Shown here piece after piece: positions 32,493 through 63,340 of a stretch of DNA of 64,000 nt. The notes under the pieces were generated by a model that was not told where the DNA came from, searched no databases, and worked only from the letters and a program-made list of their open reading frames with translations. The number at the start of each line of letters is the position of its first letter. Position 1 is the first letter of the stretch. This DNA is from Malus domestica (Eukaryota > Streptophyta > Magnoliopsida > Rosales > Rosaceae): contig NC_091667.1 in NCBI RefSeq assembly GCF_042453785.1, positions 33,658,001 through 33,722,000 of the forward strand, given 5' to 3'. The position numbers were made by a program, and so were the translations under genes.

Positions 32493-33638
32493 TCAGAGCT
32501 TAAAAGGTCGCTCAATCCAAATTGTAGGTCGATTGGTGATGTGCATTAGGGTCGTAATATCTTCTGGGTAAGGTTGCGATAAGCTTTGATCCTTGACGTT
32601 ATACACACCAAAATCATGTGATTTCAAGGGTTGGAAAGGTCTTGACTCATGTAATCATGGTTGAAGTATATGCAGTTGGGCTGACATCCTGAATATTTCG
32701 AAGCCGCCAAAGCTATCGAAGAGTTATCACCAACGAAGAGAGCAACATCACCCAAGTCGTATATTTCAGTCCGCTCACACTTGTGATGCTTGAGTTCAAA
32801 AATTCTGAATTGATAAGTCATCCGTCTCCCATCCATAACATTCCCATACCTTTCAACCATTAAAAATCTTGTCTCATTTAAATCCACAAGGTATTTCTTG
32901 GCTGGCGCTCCGTCCGTGTAGCCTAGATCCAATATTACATTGCACTTGTACTGAGCAGTAGTATCAAAAGCCACAAGATTGCGGCTGCTTTGATCAACGC
33001 CGTAAAACTCATCTTCAACTGGAACAACATCTTCAATTATATGCCGACTATCGGCAACAAAGGTCCATGTTGTATCTTTACCAGGTCTAATAAAAGCCAA
33101 TTGACAGTATACCTCGCATATCACCACGACAATGTAATTGTCTGCACATAATACAGGGTCTGCTGAAAGTATAGCCTTGTAGGCAAAATAGTAGCTGATA
33201 GACGAATCCCAATTCTTCAATGGTGGAACACCGCCGATGAGTGGAGGAAGGCGAATGATGGAATTTTCTTTCTTTCTCGTCCCTTTAATTAACCCTAAAG
33301 AATGGATTAACCAGGGTTACTACAGAATCCTTGTCCACGTATATCAACCATCCCTTCGAAGAGTCGCAGAATTATCGCACGTTCGGAACCTGTACGTGAA
33401 AATCAAGGACCTTATTCTGCATGGCATCGCACAACGACCATGTGCCTCTTTTTGCAGTCTGAATCATCAAGAGCACTGGAGTTGTCACCTTAGCGCGTTC
33501 ATAGTAGTTATGCTTTGCTACTGAATACAACCACTTAAAAACAATGCTGAAACGCAAATAATCTTCTGGCGACTCCAATCTCTCAAAGACGGAATCTAAA
33601 AGGTGCTTACGCAAATTCTGCCAAACTACCGAAGCCAT
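32493..33638 (-). pseudogene. F-box/DUF295 gene, copy 1, broken
   Basis: On minus from ATG at 33638: MASVVWQNLRKHLLDSVFER (F-box), then the DUF295 (KIB1-4-type) region ending ERPFKL before TGA. Compared with the open copy at 60296-61435, three extra bases near 33374-33380 create a stop after QVPNVR. Four extra bases near 33284-33290 shift the frame, and another shift near 32635 alters the C-terminal part (ends QDLSNP). In the F-box the usual VCKWW reads VFKWL. It would have been an SCF ubiquitin-ligase substrate adaptor. Its 5' flank departs from copies 2 and 3 right at the start codon, so it also lacks their promoter. Confidence 0.88.
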
Positions 33639-35059
33639 AGTTTTGGCTTTAGAAAACAAGAACATCTAACATCTTTTAATTGATCCAAATCAAAATGTGA
33701 GTATAAGATTAAGTATGAGAAATATGAGGTGAGATGAGTATGAGAAATACTAACGTTCACATTTTTCTCTCGCTAATTTGACGAAACCAGGTAAATTCAT
33801 ACAAAAGACGAAGGGAAATTTTATTTAAACTCATATAACATTTTTCTACACTCAACTAATTCACTACACCCATATTAATTTCAATTAAACTATCAATATC
33901 TCTTTAAACCCCAAATATCTACGTAAACTACCCTCACGAACCCAATCTAATATATAAATTTATCTTTACACCCATTTAGAAAATAAACCCAAAATCAGTT
34001 GGAGACAACTTTGTTTTTGAAACTATTTTCATATCTGATTCTTAAGTGTGTGAACCTTTTACTCCAATATTTCTTAGGAAGAAAGTGCCCATGCAGGATG
34101 GTGATCTTTTTCTCTTTTTTCTCGCTAGAGTCGAAAATATAGTCACAATGATATACATTATTCTCATCGGTATAGGACGAATGATAATCGTTATCATCAA
34201 TGTCCCAATCTTCTTCTATTTTAGTGCCACGAATGATAATCGTTATCATCAATGTCCCAATCTTCTTCTATTTTAGTGCCACGCAAAAACCATATTTGCT
34301 TAATGCATCAATCATATGCTATCTGTTGAGTTCATGTTCATCGGTTTAAATTATTCTTGAATATATATCAAAGCAGAACTCAAGGACTTTATCATAGCCG
34401 TATTTGTTGTATTTCAAGTTGTTAGAAGTAAGAACAATTTTGCTAATTATAAATATGTTCCAGATTTGGACTTCACTTTTGGAGATGAATCCTTTCGCAT
34501 TGGTTGATGGATGACACTGCTGCCTTCAAGAACTTCAAAAAGTACATTTCTTCACTTCAGTTGTTTTTACCTTGTTTGTTTTGTTATGTATAAGCCCAGC
34601 TATCAACTAGCGTTTTAGCTTCATTATTTTTATGTTTCGGTTGGTGGCAGTATTGAATTCCCAATGCCTTTTGGAAGAGTTATATGAGTCCTATAAAGAA
34701 ATTTATTAACGGGCTAACAAAGACTTTCTTTGCAAGCAATATACTTTTAAACTCTAAAAAAAATTAAAATCAAATGAAAAAAACGTGGATAAATCGATTT
34801 ATATCTTAGTTGAAGGATTCAGAACTTCAAAATCATCATCCATTAGTCAAAATGAACGTATGATAAAGATTAAGTGATGATAGAGTTTGATTATTGAGTA
34901 TGGGTTTATTGATAACTTTTAGTTTTATTATTAATTTCATCTTGTACTTAATAATAATAGTAATTATGCAATAAGATAAAAAAGACAATTAACATTTAAA
35001 ATTTAAGTTGGGTGTAATAAGGTTATATGAGTTCAAATAAAATTTTTCTCTCCTTCCGT
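33639..35059. other. Intergenic flank of F-box copy 1, with a 52-bp tandem duplication
   Basis: 33650-33800 resembles 46850-47030 (CATCTTTTAATTGATCCAAA and TTTTTCTCTCGCTA words), tying the two flanks together. At 34178-34283 a 52-bp unit (CGAATGATAATCGTTATCAT start) is repeated twice exactly. There is no gene. Confidence 0.6.
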
Positions 35060-37230: not shown

Positions 37231-37552
37231 TTCTGATTAACTAACCCCTTTTTATGTTTGTTGGGACTTGCTGCAACAATGCTTAAAATCATTAAAGTAA
37301 AATCTGAGATGTCATTCTCCACTTATTGATTGTGATCAGTAAAACTTTCCTCGCTCTTTCTCTCCTCTAGTGATTTAATCTTAAAGACCTAGACTAATTA
37401 AGATAATTGTACTAAGTAAGACATGTTCAAAAAAGTAAGACATATTCAAGAAGGGTAACATAAGGGATAATAATTAAGAACGTCTAAACAATACATATTT
37501 CTCAAAGAAAGGAAGCCATGTTTATTATCCCAGCTGAGAAGGGATTGAACAA

Positions 37553-38640
37553 AAAAAGAAAAAGAAGCCCAATTAAGTGCATTAAACAAGGAACTCAATA
37601 GCTCATAGTTCCACGACTCACCATCTGATTGTGGTTGTTCTTTTGGTTATTCAGTCCATGATGCAATACCCGTAGCTTATTGAGAGTGTTCGTGTCGGTG
37701 GGCAAGGCAATCCCTGAGAACTTGCTAATTGATCCATTTCCTGCATCTTTTGCATCTGGAGCTTGGCTGCAGAGGCATGTCAAGGATAGACTTCATGCTC
37801 TCTGCAATTATCAACACAAGTTCACCAAGAAGATAAATCATTAGGAAAACAGTCTGCACAACAAGTTCAGATATCCAAAATGCAACTGAGACAAAAAGAG
37901 GCCAACTATCGGATTTAAACTTCTAACTTAACAAGAGATAAAATAGCGTCACAATTAAAACGTTAACTCAATAAAAACTAAAGGCACAATACTCAAGAAG
38001 CATATTTAGCTACAAAACTGAAGCTTCTTTCCACACGATGATAAAATAGCGTCACAATTCAGTAGTATAATCATGCCTTAAGAAGCTGTCTAAGATAGTG
38101 CTGGCCAAGCAAATAATGCCAGAGGACGCTACTAATAACACAATCAAGCATGCATGCAAAGCAGCAAAACATAGAGTTAAAAAATATATGGGAAAAGAGG
38201 AGGCCTACCAATTGGCCCAACTTTGTTCTCCTGCAGAAGTCCAGCAAGTCTTTCATGCTATTAACATCATCTATGATCGGTCCAATGGGAAGGGAAACTT
38301 GGCCAGTTTGGAACGTGGGTATGTAGCACTCAATTCCCCTTGCTGCCGTTGGTTCTTGTGTCATTGATTTTAGCTTAACTTTTTTAGAGTTCTGGGGATG
38401 TTGAGAATTTAGTTGCACTGCAGAAGACCCATCCATAATCGATGATCCCGACATGCAAATATTGTTGGAAGAGAACGACATGAGCAGTGCTGATAAGCGT
38501 AAGTATGACTTCCTATCGATGCTTTCACTTCTCTGAAAATGGGGACCTCCTGAAAGTACAGAGTTTATATTCATCACCAGCTTTTAACAATTAATCATGG
38601 GGATGAAAGATAAACAAATGAAAGCAAGTCGGGAAACCAA
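37553..38640 (-). pseudogene. Rearranged SLK2 fragment, copy 1
   Basis: Pieces of the SLK2 gene lie in the same relative orientation but with large losses. An intron-2-like bit (37553-37600) abuts exon-10-like coding (37603-37800, LPTDTNTLNKLRVLHHGLNN). Intron-like DNA follows, then an exon-9-like piece (38208-38270, SMKDLLDFCRR) joined directly to mid-exon-2 sequence (38276-38580, including SFSSNNICMSGSSIMDGSS), then 5'-UTR-intron-like sequence. The SLK2 exons between 3 and 8 are missing. The remaining frames are broken, so no functional protein is possible. A Copia element is inserted about 50 bp further on. Confidence 0.9.
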
Positions 38641-38691
38641 ATCCAAGTTAGAAAATCTTGATTCACGCAAAGAAAAAATATGGGATGGGAG

Positions 38692-41600
38692 TGTTGAATT
38701 ATAAGTATTTGAGCTGAAAAGTTTTTTAGAATAAGTTTCTGTTTTGAATTGGTGTATTCACTTGTGCAAATGAGGCAAAGTGTAAATGTCTAGTTTTGTA
38801 AAAAGGCCATGAGTGCCATGTGTTGAGTGATCCATGAGATTAGAAAGATGTGTGTCTAGGATGAAATGTAGTGTATGTGTGGTCCCAAGTGCTAGGCCAT
38901 CAGTTATGTAAAAGCATGTGCTTCGTGTTTTTTCATTAACATAGAAAGATATTCCTCTGCAATTTGACAGAGAGTAGAAGAAAACTATTCATCTTCCATT
39001 GTGTTCTTCGGTTTGTTTTTGCTCTTAGTTAAGCTTCCTTTCTTAAGTTTAAATCTCTTAAAATTCAGAAACACTAACATGGCCTCAGAGCCTGGTTGGA
39101 TTTAACAATCTGGGCGTAAATCTGTGAAGTTGTCGAGCTCAATCGAAGCTCTCTTGAAACTCTGTGAAGGTTGTCGATTCAGATCAAAACCATGTCTGGA
39201 TCTGGAGGCTCGGAAGTGAGGACTCCAATCTTCTCCGGTGAGAACTACGAGTTCTGGAGAATCAAAATGGTGACAATCTTCAAATCACATGGGTTGTGGA
39301 ATCTGGTGGAGAAAGGAGTTAAAACGTCGGATCCGAAGAAGAAGAAGTCTGAAGGATCGTCGGAGGATGATGGAGATGAAGAAATGTCAGCTGTGTTGAT
39401 GCAAGACGCAAAGGCTTTGGGAATCATTCAGAATGCAGTCTCGGATCAAATCTTCCCTCGAATCGCCAATGCCGAGTCAGCGAAGATGGCATGGGATTTG
39501 TTGTATGGAGAGTATCATGGTGGTGATCAGGTACGATCTGTGAAATTGCAGAATCTTAGAAGAGAATTTGAATATGCTAGGATGCGAGATGATGAGTCTT
39601 TGTCTAGCTATCTTACACGGTTGAATGATCTAATAAATCAGATGAGAACATTTGGTGAATCTTTGTCGAATGAGAGACTAGTGCAGAAGGTCCTGATAAG
39701 TCTTAGCAAACCTTATGATTCTATCTGTTTGGTTATAGAAAATACAAAGTGCTTAGAGACTGTGGAATTGCAGGAAGTAGTTGCAATCTTAAAGAGTCAA
39801 GAACAACGGTTCGATTTGCATATGGTTGATGCAAATGAGAGAGCATTCTCTTCACTCTCAGTGAATCCAAAGGAGCAGAACAAGAGTGGTGGTCATTCGA
39901 GTTCATCTAGAACTCAGAGAAATTGGAATTCTAAAGGCAAGAAATGGGAATCAAAACCCAAATTTCAGCAGAAATCTCCTCTGCACAATTATCAGAGTGC
40001 AAATGCACCTCAGTCTGTGGGTCAGGAGGTTGCAAAGCCTCAGTGCAAAGTGTGTTCTAAGTATCACTTTGGTGAGTGTAGATACAAAGGGAAACCAAAG
40101 TGTTTCAACTGTGATAAATTTGGGCATTGGGCTAGGGAGTGTAATGTAGGCAGGTCAGTGCAAAAGGCAAATAATGCAAGTCAACTGGAGATGACAGGAA
40201 ATCTGTTTTATGCAAACAACACTGTCACAGAACCAAAGGTGAATGGAGAGTGGTATGTAGACAGTGGTTGTAGCAATCACATGACAGGAAATGTCGATTT
40301 GCTTGTTGAGGTTAGAACCAATGTAGCTGGTAAAGTCCAAATGCCAACTGGAGATCTTGTGAATGTTGCAGGAATGGGATCTTTAGTTATTTATACAAAT
40401 AAAGGGAGAAAATATGTTAGAGAAGTAATGTATCTTCCCGGGTTAAAGGAGAACTTACTCAGTGTTGGTCAGATGGATGAACATGGATACTTCTTGGTGT
40501 TTGGAGGTGGAATGTGCAATGTGTATGATGGTCCATCACTAGAATGCTTGGTTATGAGAGTGAAAAAGAAAGTAAATAGGTGTTATCCACTGACTTTGTT
40601 CTCTGAAAATCAAATGGTGCTGAAAGCAAGTGTTACTCACTCCACTGAGATTTGGCACAGGAGATTTGGACATCTACATTTTGGTGGTCTCAAACAATTG
40701 AGAGACAAGGAAATGGTACATGGTTTGCCACAGCTTGCAGAGTACAATGGAGTCTGTGAAGGATGCCAATTTGGTAAACAGCACAGAGAAGAATTCCCTA
40801 GAAATCAGGTGTATAGAGCAACTGCTCCACTTGAATTGATTCATGTCGATTTGTGTGGACCTATGAAGACTGAGTCACTTGCTGGAAATAAGTATTTCAT
40901 GCTGCTGATAGATGATTTTACCAGAATGATTTGGGTCTATTTCTTGAGATATAAGTCAGATGCGTTCAACTGTTTTAAGAAATTCAAAGCTATGGCAGAA
41001 TTACAAAGTGGTTTCAAGATTAAAACATTGAGAAATGACAGAGGAGGGGAGTTCAAGTCTGCAAAATTTGATCAGTTCTGTGAGAAAGAAGGTTTACAAA
41101 GACAGCTTACTCTTGCATATACTCCACAACAAAATGGAGTAGTGGAAAGAAAGAACAGAACAGTGATTGAAATGGCGAAATCTATGTTGCATGAGAAGAG
41201 GATGCCATACTTTCTCTGGGCAGAAGCTGTGCATACATCTGTGTATATTCTGAATAGATGCCCCACAAAGGCCTTAAACAACATTACACCTTTTGAAGCT
41301 TATTCTGGTAGAAAGCCAGGAATAGCTCATCTGAGAGTATTTGGATCTCTGTGTTATGTTCATGTTCCAAGTGAACAGAGACATAAACTGGAACCAAAAA
41401 GTCTAAAAGGAGTATTTGTGGGGTATGCAACTTGTGAGAAGGGGTATAGGGTGTTTGATCCATTATCTAAGAAGTTGTTCTTGTCAAGAGACATTGTGTT
41501 TGATGAAGAAGCTGTCTGGAATTGGGAAGAGAACTCAGGGTCAACATTTCTTAATACTGGAAGTTTCATGCACAGTGATATAAGCACAGAAAGTAATGAC

Positions 41601-43742
41601 AGAATGGTGTTGTCCCCTACATCACCTATTCTATCTCAGTCTAGAAGAACTCTTAATAGTGAAGACTATGAATCTGAATCAAGGTCACCTATCTTAGGTG
41701 AATCTTCAAGCATGTCAAATGCAATTGAAGGACAAAATCAAGCATTTGACAATACACCTTTGAAATGGAGAAATCTGAATGATGTATTGGCTCAATGTAA
41801 TCTGTGTATCATGGATCCAGAGAAGTATGAGGATGCCAAACAAGATGAGTCTTGGTTAAAAGCTATGGAGGATGAGCTGTTTATGATTGAAAAGAATAGC
41901 ACCTGGAAGCTTGTTGACAGACCAACTGAAAAGCCTGTCATAGGGGTTAAATGGGTTTACAAAACCAAATTAAACCTTGATGGTTCAGTGTTGAAGAATA
42001 AAGCCAGGCTGGTGGCAAAAGGCTATGCACAAAAGCCTGGTTTGGACTACAATGAGACTTATACACCGGTTGCTAGGTTGGATACCATTAGAACCTTAAT
42101 AGCTTTGGCTGCACAAAAGAGCTGGAAACTGTATCAACTAGATGTGAAATCGGCTTTTTTGAATGGAGTTCTACAAGAAGATGTCTATGTTGAGCAGCCT
42201 GAAGGTTTTGTAGTAAAAGGCAAGGAAGAAATGGTGTACAAACTTCATAAGGCCCTCTATGGTCTAAAACAAGCTCCGAGAGCTTGGTATGGAGAGATAG
42301 ACAGTTATTTCTCACAGTGTGGTTTCAAGAAAAGCTTGAGTGAACCAACACTGTATATAAAAGCAAGGGGAGAGGATATTCTGATTGTCTCTATCTATGT
42401 AGACAATATTGTCTACACTGGCAATTGCAAACCAATGCTAGAAGAGTTCAAAGAAGATATGAAAATGAAGTATGAGATGACAGATTTAGGTCTCCTTCAC
42501 CACTTCCTTGGGATGGGAGTGATACAAACTGATTCCTGCATCTTCATTAATCAGAAGAAGTATGCTAGCTCTTTACTGAGCAAATTTGGTTTAAATGAAG
42601 CAAAAACTGTCTCAACTCCTTTGGTAGCTACGGAAAAATTGTCTAAAGATGATGGAAGTGGATCTGCAAGTGATGAATTGTATAGGAGCATTGTGGGAAG
42701 CCTTCTATATCTCACTGCTACAAGGCCGGATATAATGTATGCAACTAGTTTATTGGCAAGGTACATGCACTGTCCTACCAATAGACACTATGGGACTGCA
42801 AAGAGAGTACTCAGATACATCAAGGGAACTCTGGATTATGGCTTGGAGTATGTGAAAGGAAGAAAATCATGTTTAATTGGCTTCTGTGATAGTGATTGGG
42901 GAGGTTCATTGGAAGACAGCAAAAGCACATCAGGATATGCATTCTCCTTTGGCAGTGGTGTGTTCTCTTGGGCTTCTGTCAAACAAAACTGTGTGGCATT
43001 GTCCACAGCAGAAGCAGAGTACATAAGCGCATCCGAAGCCACAGCACAAGCAATATGGCTGAGATTTGTCTTGGAAGATTTTGGAGAATTACAAACTGTA
43101 GCCACTCCTCTTCACTGTGATAACACATCTGCCATTGCTATCACAAAGAATTCTGTGTTCCATCAAAAGACAAAACACATTGATAGGAGGTATCACTTCA
43201 TTAAGGATGCACTGCAAGAAGGAATCATTGATTTGATATACTGTCCCACTGAAGAACAGATTGCAGATATCTTCACAAAACTTTTGGCTAAGGATCGGTT
43301 CAATTTTCTCAGGGATATGCTTGGTGTGAAATCAGCTCAAAACTTAAAGGGGAGTGTTGAATTATAAGTATTTGAGCTGAAAAGTTTTTTAGAATAAGTT
43401 TATGTTTTGAATTGGTGTATTCACTTGTGCAAATGAGGCAAAGTGTAAATGTCTAGTTTTGTAAAAAGGCCATGAGTGCCATGTGTTGAGTGATCCATGA
43501 GATTAGAAAGATGTGTGTCTAGGATGAAATGTAGTGTATGTGTGGTCCCAAGTGCTAGGCCATCAGTTATGTAAAAGCATGTGCTTCGTGTTTTTTCATT
43601 AACATAGAAAGATATTCCTCTGCAATTTGACAGAGAGTAGAAGAAAACTATTCATCTTCCATTGTGTTCTTCGGTTTGTTTTTGCTCTTAGTTAAGCTTC
43701 CTTTCTTAAGTTTAAATCTCTTAAAATTCAGAAACACTAACA
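38692..43742 (+). mobile_element. Copia LTR retrotransposon, very recent insertion
   Basis: The left LTR 38692-39079 and right LTR 43355-43742 (388 bp each) start TGTTGAATTATAAG and end AACACTAACA. By eye they differ at a single base (c/a in the TAAGTTT.TGTTTTG word). GGGAG stands on both sides (38687-38691, 43743-43747) as a perfect 5-bp target duplication. A primer-binding site TGGCCTCAGAGCC follows the left LTR (39080-39092). A purine tract AAAGGGGAG precedes the right LTR. The single long ORF between them is described separately. It landed beside the SLK2 relic. Confidence 0.97.
39192..43367 (+). CDS. Copia Gag-Pol polyprotein, open frame, altered RT core
   Basis: The frame runs uninterrupted from ATG 39192 to a TAA inside the right LTR, about 1391 residues. 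In order: Gag (UBN2-like, EFWRIKM, AWDLLYGEYHG), a CCHC knuckle (CFNCDKFGHWAREC), an aspartic protease (YVDSGCSNHMTG), GAG-pre-integrase (IWHRRFGHLHFGG...CEGCQFGKQ), the integrase core (HVDLCGP; LRNDRGGEF; VERKNRTVIEM), reverse transcriptase (KWVYKTKLNLDG, YQLDVKSAFLNG, LYGLKQAPRAWY) and RNase H (FCDSDWGG, STAEAEYIS, HIDRRYHFI). The RT catalytic motif, normally YVDD in Copia, reads YVDN here (about 42400), so a metal-binding Asp is lost. The family copies element RNA to DNA and integrates it; with this change the copy's own RT is probably inactive, although it was mobilised recently. Confidence 0.95.
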   Translation: MSGSGGSEVRTPIFSGENYEFWRIKMVTIFKSHGLWNLVEKGVKTSDPKKKKSEGSSEDDGDEEMSAVLMQDAKALGIIQNAVSDQIFPRIANAESAKMAWDLLYGEYHGGDQVRSVKLQNLRREFEYARMRDDESLSSYLTRLNDLINQMRTFGESLSNERLVQKVLISLSKPYDSICLVIENTKCLETVELQEVVAILKSQEQRFDLHMVDANERAFSSLSVNPKEQNKSGGHSSSSRTQRNWNSKGKKWESKPKFQQKSPLHNYQSANAPQSVGQEVAKPQCKVCSKYHFGECRYKGKPKCFNCDKFGHWARECNVGRSVQKANNASQLEMTGNLFYANNTVTEPKVNGEWYVDSGCSNHMTGNVDLLVEVRTNVAGKVQMPTGDLVNVAGMGSLVIYTNKGRKYVREVMYLPGLKENLLSVGQMDEHGYFLVFGGGMCNVYDGPSLECLVMRVKKKVNRCYPLTLFSENQMVLKASVTHSTEIWHRRFGHLHFGGLKQLRDKEMVHGLPQLAEYNGVCEGCQFGKQHREEFPRNQVYRATAPLELIHVDLCGPMKTESLAGNKYFMLLIDDFTRMIWVYFLRYKSDAFNCFKKFKAMAELQSGFKIKTLRNDRGGEFKSAKFDQFCEKEGLQRQLTLAYTPQQNGVVERKNRTVIEMAKSMLHEKRMPYFLWAEAVHTSVYILNRCPTKALNNITPFEAYSGRKPGIAHLRVFGSLCYVHVPSEQRHKLEPKSLKGVFVGYATCEKGYRVFDPLSKKLFLSRDIVFDEEAVWNWEENSGSTFLNTGSFMHSDISTESNDRMVLSPTSPILSQSRRTLNSEDYESESRSPILGESSSMSNAIEGQNQAFDNTPLKWRNLNDVLAQCNLCIMDPEKYEDAKQDESWLKAMEDELFMIEKNSTWKLVDRPTEKPVIGVKWVYKTKLNLDGSVLKNKARLVAKGYAQKPGLDYNETYTPVARLDTIRTLIALAAQKSWKLYQLDVKSAFLNGVLQEDVYVEQPEGFVVKGKEEMVYKLHKALYGLKQAPRAWYGEIDSYFSQCGFKKSLSEPTLYIKARGEDILIVSIYVDNIVYTGNCKPMLEEFKEDMKMKYEMTDLGLLHHFLGMGVIQTDSCIFINQKKYASSLLSKFGLNEAKTVSTPLVATEKLSKDDGSGSASDELYRSIVGSLLYLTATRPDIMYATSLLARYMHCPTNRHYGTAKRVLRYIKGTLDYGLEYVKGRKSCLIGFCDSDWGGSLEDSKSTSGYAFSFGSGVFSWASVKQNCVALSTAEAEYISASEATAQAIWLRFVLEDFGELQTVATPLHCDNTSAIAITKNSVFHQKTKHIDRRYHFIKDALQEGIIDLIYCPTEEQIADIFTKLLAKDRFNFLRDMLGVKSAQNLKGSVEL

Positions 43743-44059
43743 GGGAGAGGGAGATTACCACTGTACCGACTCCCCATAGGGAGATTGAAATAGTATAGGT
43801 TGGATTTATTTGAAATTTGAAGCACATGGTAAGAATATTTTTGGAAAAAATGTAGGTCAAATTTTCTATTTCTCGTTTTGCTTGATTGTCCATAAATTGA
43901 ATAACCATATTTCATTAGTTCGAAAAAAAATAATACAATTTCTCATTAAAATTGGAGACAATAGACAATGAGACAATAGGGAAAGGAAAATGCAGCGACA
44001 TTTTTAGGCATAGAACATGAGTTAAATATGACAAACATTAGAAACAACATAAAGCCTTT

Positions 44060-45197
44060 TCAGAGCTTAAAAGGTCGCTCAATCCAAATTGGAGGTCGGT
44101 TGGTCATTTGCATTAGAGTCGTAATATCTTCTGGGTAAGGTTGCGAAAAGCTTTGATCCTTGACGTTATACACACCAAAATCATGTGATTTCAAGGGTTG
44201 GAAAGCTCCTTGACGCATGTAATCATGGTTGAAGTATATGCAGTTAGATTGACATCCTGAATATTTTGAAGCCACCAAAGCTATCGAAGAGTTATCACCA
44301 ACGAAGAGAGCAACATCACCCAATTCGTCTATTTCAGTCCACTTACTTGTGAGACTTGAGTTCAAAAAGTCTGAATTGAACAGTCACGCGTTTGCCATCT
44401 ATATCATCCGTACACCTTTCGACCATTAAAAATCTTTTCTCGTTTAAATCCACAAGGTACCTCTTGACTGGCAGTCCATTCCTTTCCGGTTCATCCAATA
44501 TCAGATTGCACTTGTATTGAGCAGTAATATCAAAAGTGACAAGATTTTGGTTGCGTCGATCAACGCCATAAACTTGATCTTCAACAGGAACAACATCTTC
44601 AATTATATGCCGACTATCGTCAACAAAAGTCCATGTTGTGTCTTTGCCGGGTCTAATAAAGGCCATTTGACAATATCCCTCGCATATCACCGCAACAATG
44701 TAATTGTCTGCACATAATACAGGGTCTGCTGAAAGTATAGCTTTGTAGGCAAAATAGTAGCTGATAGACGAATCCCAATTCTCCAATGGTGGAACACCGC
44801 CGATGAGTGGAGGAAGGCGAATGATGGAATTTTCTTTCTTTCTCGCCCCTTTAACCCTAAAGAATGGATTAACCAGGGTTACTACAGAATCCTTGTCCAC
44901 ATATATCAACCATCCCTTTGAAGAGCCGCAGAATCGCACGTTAGGAACCTGTACGTGAAAATCAAGGACCTTATTCTGCATGACATCGCACAATGACCAT
45001 GTGCCTCTTTTTGCAGTCTGAATCATCAAGAGCACTGGAGTTGTCACCTTAGCACGCTGATTGTAGTTATCCTTTGCCACAGAATACCACCACTTACAAA
45101 CAATGCTGAAATGCAAATAATCCTTTGGCGACTCCAATCTCTCTAAGACGGAATCTAAAAGGTGCTTATGCAAAATTTGCCAAACTACTGAAGCCAT
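44060..45197 (-). pseudogene. F-box/DUF295 gene, copy 2, frame-broken near the C-terminus
   Basis: On minus from ATG at 45197 the frame is open for about 284 residues: F-box (ILHKHLLDSVLERLESPKDY, VCKWWYSVA) and most of DUF295 (GWLIYVDKDSVV, RYLVDLNEKRFLMVER). A 2-base loss relative to copy 3, in the words after LKSHK (about 44345), produces a TAA. The rest (DELGDVALFVGDNSSIAL ... IERPFKL) continues in another frame to 44060. The missing part includes the NCIYF motif, so the product would be truncated. The upstream 280 bp, including a TATA box at 45284-45291, is nearly the same as upstream of copy 3. Confidence 0.88.
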
Positions 45198-45283
45198 AGC
45201 TTCGACTTTCAAGCACGAATTTGCTTTGTCTCGGTTTTGTTTTTTTTTTTTTTTGTGAGCAAAACCCGTACTCCTCTTGTTTA

Positions 45284-45291
45284 TTTATATA
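45284..45291 (-). promoter_or_regulatory. TATA box upstream of F-box copy 2
   Basis: TATATAAA on minus, about 90 bp before the ATG, in a segment shared with copy 3 (45212-45490 resembles 61450-61745). The T-run lengths in between differ. Confidence 0.5.
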
Positions 45292-45921
45292 CACTAAATT
45301 CTTTCCTTCCTGGTAGTGGTAACATCGTAATCCCTCCCTGCAAGAGTAGGAGAAGATGATTTTAAGGACTAGGAAACAATAAATTACCCAAGTCTCTAAT
45401 AAGTCTCTAATGCTTGTTTCCCAAAACAAATAGATCGGAGTACCAGGATTTCCTATAACATTAAGGAAATTAATTACTCACAAACAAAAGTTTTTTTCCG
45501 GCCGCTGCTGGTCACTCACCCATTTTTATATGTGGCCATCCGATTGAACATGTGAAGTGCATACAACGAACTTGATTATGCAAGGCTGTGTAAAAGAGTA
45601 AAAATGTATGTATTTATTATTTCCTTGTAAATAATAACCGGTCTTTCATTTTAATATTTTCTTCTCTTTTCATATTCAAAAATCTCTCAATATGGAAAGT
45701 TTATTTAAGCAAATTTAATAGAGGAAATTTCAAGCATGAAAAATTCAAATTCGTAGGTTTGCAAAACCTGAACCCTCATTCTTGAAAGCGTCCTGGTGCG
45801 AGGAATTTCAACACGAACCCTTCTGGGTTTTTTTTTAAATCAGTTCATGGGCTCTTCTTTGTTTAGGATATTTAGCCTCATAAATTAATCTACCGTTAGA
45901 TTAGTTCAAGAGCTCCCTTAA

Positions 45922-46832
45922 GGGGGCGTTTGTTTGGCCTCATTAACTGGGACTGGACTGGACTAGACTGTAGTCCCATGTTTGGTTTGTATTGGAGCTA
46001 AGTTAAATGGGACTAAATGGGACTCGCGTGAATTAGAGGCCTTGCTAGGAGTTCTTAGCGAGATCCCCGCAAAACCACGGGATTGTTAAGACCTTCGTCT
46101 TCTCTCGTCTGTTCCTGCACTTCGTATCCTCTCTCTCCCTTCCTCTATCTCTTTGCACCGACATCCCAGACTCGGATCAATGTCGGCACCAACATCTAGT
46201 CCCTGGGCTTCTAACTTCTTTCTTCTGCGGCCCCGCCACTGTGGCTAGGCAGTCAGCAGTGCTTGCTCTCCCGTGGCCCGATCTGGAGGAACAACATCTC
46301 ACAGCCGATGTGGCCACACCCACCGCTTAAATATCAAAATTCGACACGGTCCGCCGTCCACGCCCACCGCCGAAATCTCAAAATCTTATCTGTTTTTTTT
46401 AGCGTAGAGTTGCAGATGGCGAAAAGAACCACCAAAATCCACCCAGATCTATATCATTTGCCATTAGTTGGGGAAGGAGTAGAGAAATGGATTGAAAAGG
46501 GGAGAGAAAGTTGTTATGGGGACGAAGAGAAATAGAGAGATGGAAAAGCAGAAAGAGGGAGATAAAGACCGGACGGAAACAAAGAGGAGAAAGAGAAGTT
46601 TCCAGAGCAGGATTTTTTTGGAAAAGCATGGAAAAAAGTAGAATTAATAAAAAAATATTATTAAATATGTATTGAATAATACAATATTGTAGTTTGTTAA
46701 GTATCTACTTTTTAGTCCGACATTACATCAAACGCTTCACTAAGTTAGTCTAGCTTAGTCTAGTCTAAGCCAGTCCAACTTAGTCCCTGAAGCTAGTCCA
46801 GTCCGAGACAGTCCGGTGCAACAAACGCACCC
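45922..46832. mobile_element. Non-autonomous PIF/Harbinger element, 911 bp
   Basis: The left end is GGGGGCGTTTGTTTGG, and the complement of the right end is GGGTGCGTTTGTTGC. TAA stands on both sides (45919-45921, 46833-46835). Subterminal GGACTGGACT / AGTCCAGTCC words are arranged in inverted fashion. The middle (46080-46620) is GC-richer, with a short frame (MAKRTTKIHPDLYHLPL) but no transposase. It may hold captured DNA; its source is not identified. It lies between the promoter of F-box copy 2 and that copy's older flank. Confidence 0.85.
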
Positions 46833-47050
46833 TAATAGTCCTCAAGATGAACATGTAACATCTTTTGATTGAACCAAATGTGAGTATGAGAAATACTCAC
46901 TTTGGCCCCAAAAGTAAGTATGAGAAGTATTTACTAGTGAGTGTGTAAGTACTATTGTTAAAATTTCTCTCTCGATAAGTATCATTGTTAACATTTTTCT
47001 CTCGCTAGCTTGACAAAACCGGGTAAGTAGGAGTTTTTACTAAAAATGAA

Positions 47051-47422
47051 TTACAAGTAAGGTCCTCTTGTAATAAATAGGACACGACTAACACAACGTG
47101 AGGCCTCTTGTGAAGAGGTTGGAGGAGCTACGGACAAAAAGAAGACCCAACTTAACCTTCCTACTACTTTGCCGCTGCAACCATGGTCGCTGAGATCCGA
47201 AGTTTTGATGAAGATATGACTGCAACTGTGGCAAACAAACTTCCCTTCATAGTCCTTCTTGTGAAGCTTTTTGGCATGAGTGACCACGCCACCTTCTTTA
47301 TCAAATTGTTTCCCACAGTTAAAGCAGACGAATTTGGGGAAATCCTCATGGACAAGGCAATTGTGTTTGGCCAAATCATCTTTGCTGGAAAACACAAGAC
47401 CACAAGCGCTGCACTCCGTCAT
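47051..47422 (-). CDS. C2H2 zinc-finger exon, possibly the 3' exon of a small gene
   Basis: About 123 residues from ATG 47422. Finger 1: C4-C7-H20-H25 (CSACGLVFSS...HNCLVH). Finger 2: C33-C36-H49-H54 (CFNCGKQF...HAKKLH). A third, imperfect one: C64-C67-H80-C82 (CHSCSHIF...HGC). The spacing CX2CX12HX4H is canonical for the first two. A pyrimidine tract and AG (TTTTTAACCTTGCAG) end exactly at the ATG, so this is probably a downstream exon and the true N-terminus lies upstream at higher coordinates, where I could not identify it. The tail after 82 shows no domain. It could be a nucleic-acid-binding protein fragment or a relic; it is unlike the plant QALGGH-type fingers. Confidence 0.5.
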   Translation of the reverse strand: MTECSACGLVFSSKDDLAKHNCLVHEDFPKFVCFNCGKQFDKEGGVVTHAKKLHKKDYEGKFVCHSCSHIFIKTSDLSDHGCSGKVVGRLSWVFFLSVAPPTSSQEASRCVSRVLFITRGPYL

Positions 47423-47750
47423 CTGCAAGGTTAAAAAGAAAAAGGGTTTTTAAACATTAGTCCTTGCAAAAGATTAAAATTTAAAAAAAAAACCTGGTGC
47501 TAGTTACATATTCAATTTAATCCCTTAAAGTGTACTTTTATCAAAATTTATATTCAATTTTTGTTATTTAATGTGTATTTTTATTTAATCTCTCCACATT
47601 AAATTTTAATTTTATTAATATGCATATTTAGTTCTTTAATTATAAATGAACATAAATGAGAAAATATTAAAAGAAATTTGTGATACAAAATATATAAATA
47701 CATGATTGTACTGTGCCGAAATATATATAATTGACTTTTTTGTACCTACA

Positions 47751-48200: not shown

Positions 48201-48924
48201 TTAATGTACCTAAAAGTCAATACTCAAATGAGATGTATTAGGTTCGAATCTCGTGGATTGCGAATTCGATACCAAATTAAGTTGTCTATTGTGTGGCTTA
48301 ACCGAACCCCCATCGCCTTAGTGTAAAATATATCGTTGTACTTAAAAAAAAAAATAAATAAAACTCAAATGTATGTACCGAAATGCATGTATATGTTTGT
48401 ATCGATGAATTAATGTACCTATATGTTTGTATTGATGGATTTACCGAAACATTCAAATATATTAATGTACCTAAATGAAGAACATACAAAATTGTTATCT
48501 GACTATATATTATAAAAAAAATTAGTTGCCTAAATGTAGACATTAAAATATTATGATAAATGAAATGAAAATTAAATTTAAATGTAATTAATACATTAAA
48601 ATAGGAATAAAAAGATAAATAAAACATCAAAATATAACTAATAACTGAGATGATTAAATGTACTAGGGACTAAAATTGGATTTTAATTTTACACAAGATT
48701 ATAGTGTAAAACTCATCTTTTTTAAGAATTAAAATGAAGTTTTCTAAAAAGAAAAATATCAGAAAAGAAAAACAAAATAAGATGCATCATAGAAAGTGGG
48801 AAAAGAAAAGAAATGCATATCATATAAGCAAAAAACCTTCCACTTTTGGAGTTTCTACTGCAATAAAAAGCAACTAGGTTTTTGAAGTTTTGAATTGCCT
48901 TGCCTATTATATGGCAAGACATGC

Positions 48925-49080
48925 AAGTAATGAAATCAGCCAACAGCTAATGAATACGGTCACTCTCCATCTATTAAATTTCTTCACCTAAGTTTTCTTT
49001 TCTCTCTCTTTTTCCAGTCACTCTCCATCTATTAAATTTCTTCACCTAAGCTTTCTTTTCTCTCTCTTTTTCCTCCCACC
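48925..49080. repeat. Remnant of the 143-bp satellite
   Basis: ATGAAATCAGCCAACAGCTA, then TCCATCTATTAAATTTCTTC and ACCTAAG followed by a CT tract. The last part is present twice. It matches about 1.5 units of the array at 35060-37230 and lies upstream of F-box copy 2, as the main array lies upstream of copy 1. Confidence 0.9.
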
Positions 49081-49860
49081 AGCGAATTGTTTGAGCTTGA
49101 AATTTCAAAATATAAATCACTGCAATTATTTGAGCCTGAACTTGCCAGATCTGTAAATGTACTACTTGTGCCTGCCTAAAATATGAATTAGGTTATGTCG
49201 CATAAATCTGTGTAAAGTAGTGCTTTTTTATTTCAGTGTGTTCATGCATCAATGGTTTTAGTCTACTATCTGCAAGCTCATGAATGTGTTATGTATATTG
49301 CATGTCTCTATTGATGAACGCATGAGCCCAAATATATGCATATGGATGGTCCTGATGACTGTTCTTCTCTGTGCTGCTTGGATCCCTACCCCCAAACTTC
49401 AATGTAATTATATTTTCAATGAAGTGTGAGAGAGTGAGAGAGTGAAAGGGGTCCATTAGCATAGAGGTCTTCTCAGCTCCCCACTGTGAGTATCCCTGGA
49501 CCTCATCCTGTGCTCATTCTGTATTATGTGCTTGCATTTGTGTTGAATTTGACTACCATGAATATTCTTATGAATGTGATGATGAATTTTGTTGTGATGA
49601 ATGGATGGTTGAATGCATACTAAGATGAATGGATGAATGTATGAATCCACAAGTAGTTGAGATTAGATCAAATTAGTTCCGAATGCAGCCTGCAATCACA
49701 AATCAAAAACCTAATTAGATAAGTAAAGAAGAATAACAAGAATTAAAAATTGCAATATTTTTTTTTCAATTTTCTGATTTTGTGTTGTTGTGATTTTTGT
49801 AGTTAGGAATAAAAACAGGAAAATAAAATAATAAACGAAATAAAAAGAAAAGAGTTAGAA
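49081..49860. other. Intergenic, no gene seen
   Basis: AT-rich, with GAATGGATG-type short repeats at 49590-49640. If the Gypsy relic had a 3' LTR, it would be expected about here on minus, but I see no match to the right-hand LTR-like sequence. Confidence 0.4.
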
Positions 49861-54250: not shown

Positions 54251-54390
54251 TTTCAAAGGTGTTGAAGAGAGAAGAGGTCGGACAAATCAAGATCTTAGAA
54301 GTGCAAGAATGGAGCTTCTACTGGTGGAGATTCAAGTGTGTTTTGGAACTTAATGCCAGCCTCTATAAAAATCTGCACTCGACGGAGCTT

Positions 54391-54590
54391 CAGAAATCGA
54401 AGAGGCGTTTGCTTTCTCAAAAGCTGGGCTGCTCAGAGACCACGAGACGTTTGCTTTCTCAAAAGTTGGGCTGCTCAAAGACCACGAAGGCGGATCTCAG
54501 AAATCGAAGAGGCGCTTGCTTTCTCAAAAGCTGGGCTGCTCAGAGACCACGAGGGCCAATCTCAGAAATCGAAGAGGCACCTACTTTTCC
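54391..54590. repeat. Minisatellite, about 60-bp units
   Basis: Units contain CAGAAATCGAAGAGGCG, TTTGCTTTCTCAAAAGCTGG and GCTGCTCAGAGACCACGA, three to four copies with one shortened. Confidence 0.85.
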
Positions 54591-55009
54591 AGCCTTGTCA
54601 GCACCTGTCAGCTTTGCGGAAATTATGGGCATTATGTCGAAGATTTCTGGTGAAGTAGAAAGCACATGAATCTTACTGTTCAATCACCCACTTCCCACAC
54701 ACAACATTAGCTCATGGGTACCACAGATAACTTTGCCAAAGTTCTCTGACAAAGTTGAGACACGTGAAGCTTGTAGCTCCCACTACACCGCTCTGACCAA
54801 GAAGGGTAAAAGAATAGCAAAGAAACAGCACTAACAAAGTTTAAACACATAAATTTTGAAGGTCTAGCTACCATATTATTACCCACAAGGGTAAAGGAAC
54901 AGTACCATTGCTGGATAATTGGAAAGTCCCTGTGTGTCAACCTCTGTGCTTCGTGGCAAGATAGATTAGCAAACATGCCCAACCTTTTCTCACATTCGAG
55001 AAAACACTC

Positions 55010-55267
55010 CCAACAAGATTGCTTGCTCCAAAATCGAAGAGGCACCGCCCTCCGAATCTCGAGAGCCAGACTCCCAACATGATTACTTTCTCAAAAATCG
55101 AAGAGACACCGCTCTCCGAATCTCGAGAGCCAGACCCCTAGCAGGATTGCTTTCTCAAAAATCGAAAAGGCATCGTTCTCCGAATCTCGAGAGCCAGATC
55201 TCCGACAGGATTGCTTGTTCGAAAACCGAAGAGGCACCACTTTCCCAACTTCAAGAGCCGGATCTCC
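55010..55267. repeat. Minisatellite, four units of about 64 bp
   Basis: Units contain AAATCGAAGAGGCACCG, TCCGAATCTCGAGAGCCAGA and GGATTGCTTTCTCAA. Unit cores start near 55033, 55097, 55161 and 55225, a regular spacing of 64 bp. Confidence 0.88.
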
Positions 55268-59760: not shown

Positions 59761-60053
59761 CAGTATACTAAAAATTTATGGCACAACGAAGTCCAATATA
59801 CTAAAAATTTGGTGTGGTAAGGGTACTAGATTTTTCCGTAACCTGCTAAACTTTTTGGGTGGAAAAATGTACATATTACATATAGTAACTCCATGTGATA
59901 GAGCAAATTCAGTAGATGAATGATAACATAGAGATTGGATGGTATTGGTAGTAAAGTTGTTATGCAACACTTTTAAAATATGAAAATGCATCGAGAAATA
60001 TTATAATATGTTGTATGTATGTATATATATATATATGAAAACCTTAAGAATTA

Positions 60054-60099
<46 letters not shown>
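60054..60099. repeat. (TA)n(TG)n compound microsatellite
   Basis: About 13 TA units followed directly by about 10 TG units. A shorter TA tract lies at 60022-60036. Confidence 0.95.
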
Positions 60100-60295
60100 T
60101 TTGTTTAGTAAATTCTTGAATTGTTTTAATTTGAACGACCATATTCATTAGTTAAAGAAAACAAAAAAAGAATACCATTTCTCATTAAAATTGGAGGAGC
60201 CAACAGCCAATAGGAAAAGAAAAATGCAGCGACATTTTTAAGCATAGAACATGGGTTAGGATATGGCAAACATGAGAAAGAAAAAGTAAAGCCCT

Positions 60296-61435
60296 TTAGA
60301 GCTTAAAAGGTCGGTCAACCCAAATTGGAGGTCGATTGGTCATCTGCATAAGGGTCATAATATCTTCTGGGTAAGGTTGCGAAAAGCTTTGATCCTTGAC
60401 GTTGTACACACCAAAATCATAAGATTTCATGGGTTGGAAGAATCCTTGACTAATGTTGTCGTGGCAGAAGTATATGCAGTTGGGCTGACATCCTGAATAT
60501 TTCGAAGCCACCAAAGCTATCGAAGAGTTATCACCAACGAAGAGAGCAACATCACCCAAGTCGTATATTTCAGACCACTCACACTTGTGAGACTTCATTT
60601 CAAAAATTCTGAGCTGATGAGTCATTCGTCTCCCATCTATAACATCACAATACCTTTCAACCATTAAAAATCTTTTCTCATTTAAATCCACAAGGTATCT
60701 CTTGGCTGGCACTTCTCCCGTGTAGCCGGCATCCAATATTACATTGCACTTGTACTGAGCACTAGTATCAAAAGCTACAAGATTGCGTCTTCCTTGATCA
60801 ACGCCGTAAAATTCATCTTTAACACGAACAACATCTTCAATTATATGCCGACTATCGGCAACAAAAGTCCATGTTGTGTCTTTACCGGGTCTAATAAAAG
60901 CCAATTGACAGTATACCTCGCATATCACCACAACAATGTAATTGTCTGCACATAATACAGGGTCTGCTGAAAGTATAGCTTTGTAGGCAAAATAGTAGCT
61001 GATAGACGAATCCCAATTCTTCAATGGTGGAACACCGCCGATGAGTGGAGGAAGGCGAATGATGGAATTTTCTTTGTTTGTCTTCCCTTTAACCCTAAAG
61101 AATGGATTAACCAGATATACTACAGAATCCTTGTCCACATATATCAACCATCCCTTTGAAGAGCCGCAGAATCGCACGTTAGGAACCTGTACGTGAAAAT
61201 CAAGGACCATATTCTGCATGACATCGCACAACGACCATGTGCCTCTTTTTGCAGTCTGAATCAACAAGAGCACTGGAGTTGTCACCTTAGCACGCTGATT
61301 GTAGTTATCCTTTGCCACAGAATACCACCACTTACAAACAATGCTGAAATGCAAATAATCCTTTGGCGATTCCAATCTCTCCAAGACGGAATCTAAAAGG
61401 TGCTTATGCAAACTTTGCCAAACTACTGAAGCCAT
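60296..61435 (-). CDS. F-box protein with DUF295 (KIB1-4-type) domain, intact copy 3
   Basis: Single exon, 379 residues from ATG 61435. Residues about 6-43 form the F-box (WQSLHKHLLDSVLERLESPK, FSIVCKWWYSVA). About 60-345 is the DUF295 beta-propeller-like region, with RFCGSSKGWLIYVDKDSVVY, RYLVDLNEKRFLMVERY and the signature GCQPNCIYF. The end, MTNRPPIWVDRPFKL, is the usual tail of the family. F-box/DUF295 proteins are predicted SCF (Skp1-Cullin-F-box) adaptors that choose proteins for ubiquitination. KIB1 acts in brassinosteroid signalling, but many others have no known target, and the target is unknown here. Of three copies in this window it alone has no break. A TATA box lies about 105 bp upstream. 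Confidence 0.92.
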   Translation of the reverse strand: MASVVWQSLHKHLLDSVLERLESPKDYLHFSIVCKWWYSVAKDNYNQRAKVTTPVLLLIQTAKRGTWSLCDVMQNMVLDFHVQVPNVRFCGSSKGWLIYVDKDSVVYLVNPFFRVKGKTNKENSIIRLPPLIGGVPPLKNWDSSISYYFAYKAILSADPVLCADNYIVVVICEVYCQLAFIRPGKDTTWTFVADSRHIIEDVVRVKDEFYGVDQGRRNLVAFDTSAQYKCNVILDAGYTGEVPAKRYLVDLNEKRFLMVERYCDVIDGRRMTHQLRIFEMKSHKCEWSEIYDLGDVALFVGDNSSIALVASKYSGCQPNCIYFCHDNISQGFFQPMKSYDFGVYNVKDQSFSQPYPEDIMTLMQMTNRPPIWVDRPFKL

Positions 61436-61539
61436 AGCTTCAACTTTCAAGCACGAATTTGCCTTGTCTCTCTATTTTTTTTTTCTTTTTTTCTTTTTTC
61501 TTTTTTTGTTGTGAGCAAAACACGTACCCCTCGTGTTTA

Positions 61540-61547
61540 TTTATATA
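61540..61547 (-). promoter_or_regulatory. TATA box of the intact F-box gene
   Basis: TATATAAA on minus, in a 280-bp upstream segment shared with F-box copy 2. A T-rich run on plus (61467-61509) lies between the box and the start codon. Confidence 0.55.
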
Positions 61548-61789
61548 CACTAAATTCTTTCCTTCCTGGTAGTGGTAACATCGTAAATTCGTAATCCCTC
61601 CCTGCAAGAGTAGGAGAAGATGATTTAAGGACTAGGAAAATAAATTACCCAATTCTCTAATGCTTGTTTCCCAAAACAAATAGGTCGGAGTACCAGGATT
61701 TCCTGTAACATTAAGGAAATTAATTACTCGCAAACAAAAGTTTTTTTCGAACTAAAGATACATTGCCGCTGCCTCTTATATAGCAAGGC

Positions 61790-61885
61790 ATGCAACACAA
61801 AGCAGTAGAAATCACTCTCTTTATGACAGCTAATAGGTAATAAATAATGTCTCTTTCCCTCTATTAATCTTATTTAACTAAACTT
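61790..61885. repeat. Degenerate remnant of the 143-bp satellite
   Basis: GACAGCTAATAGGTAATAAA, then TCTTTCCCTCTATTAATCTT and AACTAAACTTTCCTTA, matches the second half of one satellite unit with many changes. It sits between F-box copy 3 and an SLK2 relic, the same position the large array has in the first block. Confidence 0.7.
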
Positions 61886-62011
61886 TCCTTAATCTCTAAC
61901 AAGTTAAGATATTCATAGAATTTTTTTTATCGAAATGGAAAGATCAATTAACCCTTTTGTGTTTACTATGTCATACAATAAGCTTAAATCATTAGCGAGG
62001 AGAAGAGAAAG

Positions 62012-63340
62012 GAAACCAGGCTGGGACATTGTTAAGGAAGTAGCACTGAATGCCCCTTGCCGCTATTGGTTCTGGTGTTGCTGGTTTTGCTGAATATGTT
62101 GAGAGTTCTGATCATGCTAATATTGTTGGAAGAGCATTACATGGCCGGTGCTGGTAAGCGTAAGTACAACTCTGTATTGATGCTTACACTTTTCTGAAAA
62201 TGGAGACTTCGTAAAAGTAGAGAGTTTATATTCTGTATGAGCTTTCAACAATTTATGATGGGGATCTAAGATAAAAGGAAGGAAACAACACTATCAGCAG
62301 CATAACGAGAAAAAATAAACACAGAAATTGAACTAGTTTCCAAACCAACATTAGGCAGAAAGTAGATTCAACATTAACAACCAGCACGAAACACACAATC
62401 GGATGTCTTCAAATCTAGCATTGAATTAGAATCAATTATTGCAATTGAGAAGTTGGCCCTAAAAAAGTGGCTAAGTGGAGGGCTACATTTGATCAGCGTG
62501 ATGCCCCTTTGGCCAAATAATGGTTTGGTAGGCTCCACAGAATTATACCCCAGCTATCAATTTGAGATGAATTTTTGGCAAATCAGGTCATCGTTTGCCT
62601 TTTGGACAACCTTTAGCCCTCCCCATTGGAGATGGCCTAACTTGTAACCAAACTACCCTTGAAAAAATGACATAAGCTTGTCAACCCTGAACCCACCAAT
62701 TACTAGAGAGCCTAAACAAAACCAGTTCAATTGAGCTGAAAATTTAACAAAGTAAAACCGGAATAAAGAAATTATAAGCTAAATTCTTATCAGAGAGACA
62801 GATTTCAGACTAGTAACAAAATATTAACGAAATTAAACTAGTCAAACTCTTAAGCAAGTAGAAAAACAAGAAGATCGAGCAGCAGAGTCAAAATTTTGAA
62901 GACCAAGTAGAACAAAAAATCAGTGAGCTCTTTGCATTCCAGAGATCGATCGATCATAGCTTAATATACATAACCAAAACGAATAATCCTAACTAGCTGC
63001 AAAAATTTAAGCCAAAATACACGGCCGCAAATGACCTCAAGAATCGGGAGCTGTACAAGCGGAACGTTACCTTTTCGTCGACCAAAAATTTGCAGACAAC
63101 TTTTAGAGAGAGTGAAACGGCAGACCTAAAACTTAAGGGGTGTGCTATCCACATATCCTATTTTACTTCTCACATATCTTTTGATAATTTTTGTCTGTTG
63201 ATCTTCTTAAATTCATTCGATCCGAATGTTAAAAATTAAAAAGATGTGTAAGAAGTAAAATAGAGTGTGGATATCACACCCCAAAACTTAAAAACATGAA
63301 GAGTGAAAACAGTAGTGTTTATATACATGGCTGCATTTGA
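62012..63340 (-). pseudogene. SLK2 5'-end fragment, copy 2
   Basis: 62012-62230 resembles SLK2 exon 2 (the 29110-29370 part) with losses. 62235-62400 and 62640-63110 resemble the SLK2 5'-UTR intron and leader (for example GGATCTAAGATAAA, ACACTATCAGCAGCA, AGAATCGGGAGCTGTA). The TATA region is kept at about 63316-63325. About 200 bp at 62455-62645 is extra and MITE-like (ends GGCCCTAAAA / GGAGATGGCC). It is interrupted by a 146-bp Mutator-like MITE at 63137-63282. There is no usable frame. Confidence 0.85.
63137..63282. mobile_element. Mutator-like MITE with 9-bp target duplication
   Basis: The left end GGGGTGTGCTATCCACA and the complement of the right end GGGGTGTGATATCCACA are nearly identical. 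The arms extend about 45 bp (TATTTTACTTCT shared). AAAACTTAA stands on both sides (63128-63136, 63283-63291), the 9-bp duplication expected of Mutator-type transposition. It splits the leader/TATA region of the SLK2 relic. Confidence 0.88.

What the first reader, a model, noticed from the sequence alone, without database searches (positions are those of the whole stretch)
32493..63340. Triplicated F-box / satellite / SLK2-fragment block beside the intact SLK2 gene
Seen directly: F-box copies at 32.5, 44.1 and 60.3 kb on the same strand; a 143-bp satellite (or its remnant) upstream of each (35.06, 48.93, 61.79 kb); SLK2-derived relics after the satellite at 37.6 and 62.0 kb. The upstream flank of copy 1 (33.65-33.80) matches 46.85-47.03, upstream of copy 2. 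Inference: a partial SLK2 5' region, an F-box gene and satellite DNA duplicated as a unit, then decayed and were invaded by retrotransposons. The satellite may have promoted unequal crossing-over.
Basis: partly seen in the sequence, partly recalled or inferred. Interest (0 to 1): 0.72.

Follow-up and report, generated by a model that had tools for sequence, protein, structure and literature searches.

The report
Old decayed tandem gene block, apple
Beside a working developmental gene on an apple-like chromosome lie the eroded remains of an old local duplication (broken pieces of that gene, three F-box gene copies of which one is still open, and a short tandem repeat found only here), a clear but ordinary record of how plant genomes duplicate and decay.

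Summary
Three KIB-type F-box copies lie on one strand (32204-33650, 43788-45498, 60127-61748). A 143-bp repeat array or a single-unit remnant lies upstream of each, and SLK2 relics lie at 37479-38627 and 62002 to about 63340. Units 1 and 3 repeat the order F-box, repeat, flank, SLK2 relic, and both relics share one deletion that removed the start codon. They therefore descend from one already broken SLK2 copy, later copied together with its neighbours. No relic was found in unit 2.

Three corrections. (1) The relics are DNA-level copies, together spanning TATA region to exon 10 with intron sequence, not just a 5' piece. (2) The 'satellite' is private: all 17 genome-wide matches to its core lie in the window, and sister units carry about one unit. 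It looks like local growth of F-box upstream DNA and probably did not cause the duplication. (3) The relics are about equally far from the chr7 gene and its chr1 homoeologue, and far more diverged than those two from each other, so the SLK2 duplication probably predates the chr7/chr1 split. No relic or array was found in the homoeologous interval (7.2 kb versus 31.6 kb).

F-box copy 3 looks like a mosaic of copies 1 and 2. Ordinary in kind.

The parts
25018..29644 (-). Intact SLK2-like gene, coding exons 29644-28685, 28503-28372, 28178-28130, 27768-27554, 27465-27397, 26931-26831, 26732-26639, 26529-26460, 25907-25018 (859 aa); 5' UTR exon and TATA near 30600-30725
32204..33650 (-). F-box (KIB1-4) copy 1, broken: 3-bp insertion carrying an in-frame stop, 4-bp insertion, 1-bp deletion
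33655..33794 (.). Unit-1 upstream flank shared with unit 2 (46844-47026)
33811..35045 (.). Dispersed terminal-inverted-repeat DNA element between F-box 1 and the array
   Evidence: 106 matches; 40 of 1346 candidates scored
35047..37236 (.). 143-bp tandem array, 15.3 copies, private to this locus
37479..38627 (-). SLK2 relic A: intron-2 piece (out of order), start of exon 10, intron 9, exon 9, part of exon 2, piece of intron 1
38692..43742 (+). Copia LTR retrotransposon with GGGAG on both sides (38687-38691, 43743-43747); the two LTR regions align at 99.5% over 396 bp
43788..45498 (-). F-box (KIB1-4) copy 2 with 5' flank, broken by a 2-bp deletion
46844..47026 (.). Unit-2 upstream flank shared with unit 1
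48894..49098 (.). Unit-2 pre-repeat flank and single repeat unit with an internal 58-bp doubling
60127..61748 (-). F-box (KIB1-4) copy 3 and flanks; open frame 61435-60296, 379 aa
61762..61999 (.). Unit-3 pre-repeat flank, one decayed repeat unit (61827-61897), post-repeat flank shared with unit 1
62002..63340 (-). SLK2 relic B: part of exon 2, intron 1, 5' UTR exon, TATA region; MITE at 63137-63282 with AAAACTTAA on both sides

Best explanation
This is the eroded remains of a local tandem duplication upstream of SLK2. Shown: a copy of SLK2 (TATA region to exon 10, with intron sequence) lost about 0.5 kb containing its start codon, and this already broken copy exists twice, each time next to the same repeat and F-box neighbours in the same order and orientation. 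Inferred: the F-box + repeat + broken-SLK2 unit was multiplied by unequal crossing-over or a comparable tandem event. F-box copies then exchanged sequence (copy 3 is F2-like in its 5' part and mostly F1-like further on). In unit 1 a single upstream repeat unit grew into a private array of 15 copies. Mobile elements then helped spread the block to 31.6 kb. The SLK2 copying probably happened before the chr7 and chr1 homoeologues diverged, with loss on chr1. No present function is shown; only F-box copy 3 has an open frame.
For: Same order in units 1 and 3, with alignable flanks. Same deletion junction in relics A and B; the chr7 and chr1 genes keep that stretch. Of 272 four-way columns 14 join A+B against the two genes, 1 and 0 support the other pairings; leaving out columns at the junction, 12, 1 and 0 of 249. 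Intron 9 and TATA region kept, so not a retrocopy. Divergence: intron-1 region K chr7-chr1 0.126, relic B-chr7 0.315, relic B-chr1 0.335, transversions alone 0.056/0.145/0.151. Relic branch 4.4 (3.3-6.0) times the mean gene branch in intron 1/5' UTR and 3.0 (2.1-4.4) times in intron 9. Relics match chr7 at 71 and chr1 at 53 diagnostic sites, p 0.13. Homoeologue colinear on both sides of the block; between them no match to SLK2, relics or array better than E 0.03. Array core: 17 of 17 genome matches lie in the window, reversed control 0. F3 mosaic: maximum chi-square 28.3, 0 of 5000 permutations as high.
Against: No SLK2 relic was found in unit 2, so three full units are not shown. If the duplication predates the homoeologue split, chr1 must have lost it; the one F-box trace found there is inverted and closest to another paralogue. 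Relic A has a piece of intron 2 out of order. F-box divergence (CDS K 0.08-0.10; Ks 0.145-0.178) is lower than relic A-B divergence (K 0.28 over 273 columns), so one simultaneous event needs selection or exchange among F-boxes; the 3' flanks (K 0.21-0.23) fit better. Relics could mutate faster than gene introns.
Confidence: 0.8

Rival explanations
1. The block arose after the homoeologue split, on chr7 only, from the chr7 SLK2 gene, and decayed fast because pseudogenes mutate faster.
For: No relic or array was found on the chr1 side; relics are slightly closer to chr7 (71 versus 53 sites).
Against: The 71:53 split does not differ significantly from equal (p 0.13). Transversions, which methylation-driven decay should not raise, are also 2.3-5.2 times longer on the relic branch.
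Confidence: 0.2
2. SLK2 pieces and F-boxes came together by transposon capture (Helitron or MULE-like) and spread as captured fragments.
For: Other SLK2 fragments exist on chr2 (91-97% to the chr7 gene) and chr15 (95%), so the gene is copied in pieces; relic A has a scrambled piece.
Against: Those fragments cover largely other parts and are much less diverged. The relics include the promoter region and two introns in part, and lie next to the parent in the same orientation with shared unit flanks. I recognised no element ends around the unit, but did no systematic search for them.
Confidence: 0.08
3. The 143-bp array is ancestral and large in all three units, drove the unequal exchange, and collapsed to one unit in units 2 and 3.
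For: Monomers are not recent copies (mean identity 88.5% over 14 monomers).
Against: Units 2 and 3 carry about one unit, and unit 3 keeps flanking DNA on both sides of it that is shared with unit 2 on one side and unit 1 on the other.
Confidence: 0.2
4. F-box copies and SLK2 relics are independent insertions that sit together by chance.
For: No relic found in unit 2.
Against: Shared deletion in both relics and shared flank order; none of the 23 F-box DNA matches lies near the chr2:7.9 Mb or chr15:20.2 Mb SLK2 pieces.
Confidence: 0.03

Closest known systems
Tandem segmental duplication with pseudogenisation and TE invasion in plant genomes
   Same: Head-to-tail unit, same strand, truncated gene copies, TE infill
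   Different: Nothing in kind; here two sister relics preserve a shared deletion that orders the events
KIB1-4 (DUF295-type, name recalled) F-box gene clusters
   Same: F-box-like + KIB1-4 beta-propeller; further relatives nearby at chr7 33.84-33.85 and 34.07 Mb
   Different: These three form a close group; the five other loci compared are 61-64% over their longest alignments
Satellite DNA
   Same: Head-to-tail 143-bp monomers
   Different: One locus only, 15 copies, single-unit homologue upstream of sister genes; better called a local minisatellite-like array
SEUSS / LDB1-type co-regulator genes (LIM_bind)
   Same: Intact neighbour gene has a LIM_bind domain over the full profile
   Different: Relics lack most domain exons (3-8) and the start codon

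Membership tests
Tandem segmental duplication | Units in same order and orientation with alignable flanks | tested here: met
   (units 1 and 3; unit 2 in part)
Tandem segmental duplication | Shared derived breakpoints between units | tested here: met
   deletion near 29404-29914 in both relics
Tandem segmental duplication | Three complete units | tested here: not met
   No SLK2 relic found in unit 2 at E 1e-5
KIB1-4 F-box proteins | KIB1-4 beta-propeller domain | tested here: met
   F3 161 bits, F1 fragment 122, F2 87; cut-off 27.4
KIB1-4 F-box proteins | F-box domain | tested here: inconclusive
   F-box-like 21.9 (F3) and 22.2 bits (F2), below cut-off 24.3
SEUSS-like (SLK2) | LIM_bind domain in intact gene | tested here: met
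   E 4.1e-66
SEUSS-like (SLK2) | Orthology to SLK2 rather than SEU/SLK1/SLK3 | not tested
   no annotated plant proteins in these tools
Satellite DNA family | Occurs as a genome-wide or multi-locus repeat | tested here: not met
   17 of 17 pattern matches in 651 Mb lie in this window; one search agrees (9 matches, all here)
Processed (retro) pseudogene | Introns absent, no promoter | tested here: not met
   intron 9, intron 1 and TATA region in part present

The most novel reading that the evidence does not exclude
The locus preserves the birth of a tandem array: a single 143-bp piece of F-box upstream DNA, still single in two sister units, grew to 15 copies in the third and, as far as the searches see, nowhere else in the genome. 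With the relics around it, this would be a polarised case of in-situ array birth inside a block about as old as, or older than, the homoeologue split.
Probability: 0.5. Interest if true: 0.4.

Novelty: new member of a known kind. Interest (0 to 1): 0.25.

Why it matters
It is a well-resolved example of several steps in one place: tandem copying, shared decay, exchange among F-box copies, private array growth, TE infill, and an asymmetric homoeologue. Annotators should not call the SLK2 relics or F-box copies 1 and 2 intact genes, nor the array a genome satellite. It does not point to a new mechanism.

Tried and rejected
Retrocopy origin of the relics: rejected, since intron and TATA-region sequence is present. 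Orthology of the chr1 F-box remnant to this block: not supported; of 8 F-box sequences compared its best match is the chr7 34.07 Mb paralogue. Purifying selection on F3: not shown; unique changes N:S are F1 23:17, F2 33:18 plus 1 stop, F3 27:12, so the open copy looks no more constrained than the broken ones.

Literature. One search listed 5 papers for SEUSS-LIKE + apple + genome; one passage of PMC7297030 was read, on the LEUNIG-SEUSS complex, not this locus. One search found 0 papers. Searches (1 paper; 10 of 109 listed; 10 of 112 listed) were seen as listings with starts of abstracts. Passages of PMC5120355 added nothing. Nothing on this locus was seen in these searches, which are few and cover open-licence papers only.

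Limits. No other Rosaceae genome was available. One search scored 40 of 2079 candidates and its list misses relic B, so SLK2 fragments elsewhere are a lower bound. One search scored 40 of 235 and did not list the known 74-79% match in unit 1, so it cannot exclude weak copies of that flank. The pattern does not see the decayed unit of unit 3, so single decayed units elsewhere could be missed. In one search relics A and B overlap in part of exon 2, so the pooled 71:53 count uses some sites twice. The first SLK2 exon borders were wrong and replaced; the exon/intron split used the earlier borders, off by about one base.

Full report
Setting. The window is G000:C7:33658001-33722000 in a 651-Mb assembly of 19 contigs. 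Contig sizes and number point to Malus (recalled, not tested). The intact gene is on the minus strand with nine coding exons and 859 codons; a 300-aa stretch carries a LIM_bind domain (E 4.1e-66). Its homoeologue lies at C1:29495323-29501835, with Ks 0.205 and Ka 0.020 over 856 codons.

What is there. Reading the + strand: SLK2 (25.0-30.7 kb), its upstream region (to about 32184), F-box 1, a flank, a TIR element (33811-35045, dispersed in the genome), the 143-bp array, a short flank, SLK2 relic A, a Copia element (LTR regions 99.5% identical, GGGAG on both sides), F-box 2, about 3.4 kb that unit 3 lacks, one repeat unit, about 11 kb that includes reverse-transcriptase pieces, F-box 3, one decayed repeat unit, a short flank, SLK2 relic B, and then DNA colinear with chr1 from 63776 on.

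Unit structure. Beyond the coding part, all three F-box pairs align in the 3' flank (K 0.21-0.23). F2 and F3 share 287 columns of 5' flank at 95%; F1 does not share it (12 columns only). F1 and F2 share a further upstream piece (33655-33794 ~ 46844-47026), U2 and U3 share the DNA just before the repeat, and U1 and U3 share the DNA just after it. Local-alignment scores against the maximum of 1000 dinucleotide shuffles were 105/61, 49/33 and 47/43; the last margin is narrow.

SLK2 relics. Relic A matches part of exon 2, then exon 9, intron 9 and the start of exon 10, with everything between exon 2 and exon 9 gone, plus an out-of-order piece of intron 2. Relic B matches part of exon 2, intron 1, the 5' UTR exon and, past a MITE, the TATA region (score 63 against a shuffle maximum of 41). 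Both lack the same stretch, near 29404-29914, with the same junction; the chr7 and chr1 genes keep it. Of 272 four-way columns, 14 join A+B against the two genes, 1 supports one alternative and 0 the other; without the columns at the junction it is 12, 1 and 0 of 249. This is the strongest argument that a broken SLK2 copy was itself duplicated.

Age. In the intron-1 region, K is 0.126 between the two genes, but 0.315 and 0.335 from relic B to them. With bootstrap, the relic branch is 4.4 (3.3-6.0) times the mean gene branch there and 3.0 (2.1-4.4) times in intron 9 from relic A; with transversions alone 5.2 (3.4-8.4) and 2.3 (1.4-3.7). The difference between the distances to chr1 and chr7 includes zero in all four tests. 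At diagnostic sites relics match chr7 71 times and chr1 53 times (p 0.13). With equal neutral rates this puts the SLK2 duplication at roughly 1.6 to 3 times the age of the homoeologue split (inference). Faster mutation of the relics cannot be excluded.

Homoeologue. Strong colinearity with chr1 runs to window 31924, a weak 40-bp match (E 2e-4) to 32184, and it resumes at 63776. Between these chr1 has 7.2 kb where chr7 has 31.6 kb. In that interval no match to SLK2, the relics or the array was better than E 0.03. It has an inverted KIB F-box remnant whose best match is the paralogue at C7:34.07 Mb, not this block. If the age estimate is right, chr1 lost its copy.

F-box copies. The Pfam hits are KIB1-4 beta-propeller (above cut-off) and F-box-like (just below cut-off). 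Copy 1 has an inserted in-frame stop and frameshifts, copy 2 a 2-bp deletion, copy 3 is open for 379 codons. Of the sites that tell the copies apart, F3 agrees with F1 at 69, with F2 at 61, and differs from both agreeing at 53. The 24 first F1/F2-type sites from the 5' end are 23 F2-like to 1, the rest 38 F2-like to 68 F1-like: maximum chi-square 28.3, 0 of 5000 permutations as high. F2-F3 Ks is 0.051 over the first 128 codons compared and 0.22 over the rest; F1-F3 is 0.165 and 0.135. In the alignment stretch around the stop codon and 3' flank the two patterns are about even (17:16), so the mosaic is not a single clean switch. Unequal exchange or gene conversion explains this. Branch-unique N:S counts (23:17, 33:18, 27:12) give no sign of stronger constraint on F3.

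The repeat. The array core, searched with up to 2 mismatches over the whole genome, gives 17 matches, 15 in the array and 2 in unit 2; the reversed control gives 0. A DNA search with 431 bp of the array gave 9 matches, all at this locus. Monomers average 88.5% identity (14 monomers). Because units 2 and 3 carry about one unit, and unit 3 keeps shared flanks on both sides, local growth in unit 1 is more likely than collapse elsewhere, but collapse is not excluded.

Verdict. A real and readable case of local tandem duplication and decay; ordinary in kind.

Noticed in passing
L028 (C2:7886001-7889500) 794-2649; C15:20228113-20228395: SLK2 fragments elsewhere, 91-97% and 95% like the chr7 gene, the chr2 one with intron sequence and internal gaps; against a pure chr7 origin, one 121-bp piece of the chr2 copy is 98% like the chr1 gene.
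   Followed up: partly
31149-31317: Dispersed repeat of about 168 bp in the SLK2 upstream region, many copies on other chromosomes.
   Followed up: no
33811-35045: TIR DNA element of about 1.23 kb with four near full-length copies at 82-86% on three chromosomes in the listing.
   Followed up: partly
45931-46834: MITE-like element with terminal inverted repeats flanked by TAA, read by eye.
   Followed up: no
47051-47449: C2H2 zinc-finger open frame on the minus strand in the stretch that unit 3 lacks; no other DNA match listed to most of it (40 of 235 candidates scored).
   Followed up: partly
37479-37597: Intron-2 piece of SLK2 lying out of gene order next to the exon-10 piece of relic A, as if two SLK2 copies had been joined head to tail.
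   Followed up: partly
L029 4027-4641 (C1:29507027-29507641): Inverted KIB F-box remnant beside the chr1 SLK2, closest to the C7:34.07 Mb paralogue of the 8 sequences compared.
   Followed up: yes
22900-23529: Open frame on the + strand with a DapB C-terminal domain match, E 2.6e-12, left of SLK2.
   Followed up: no
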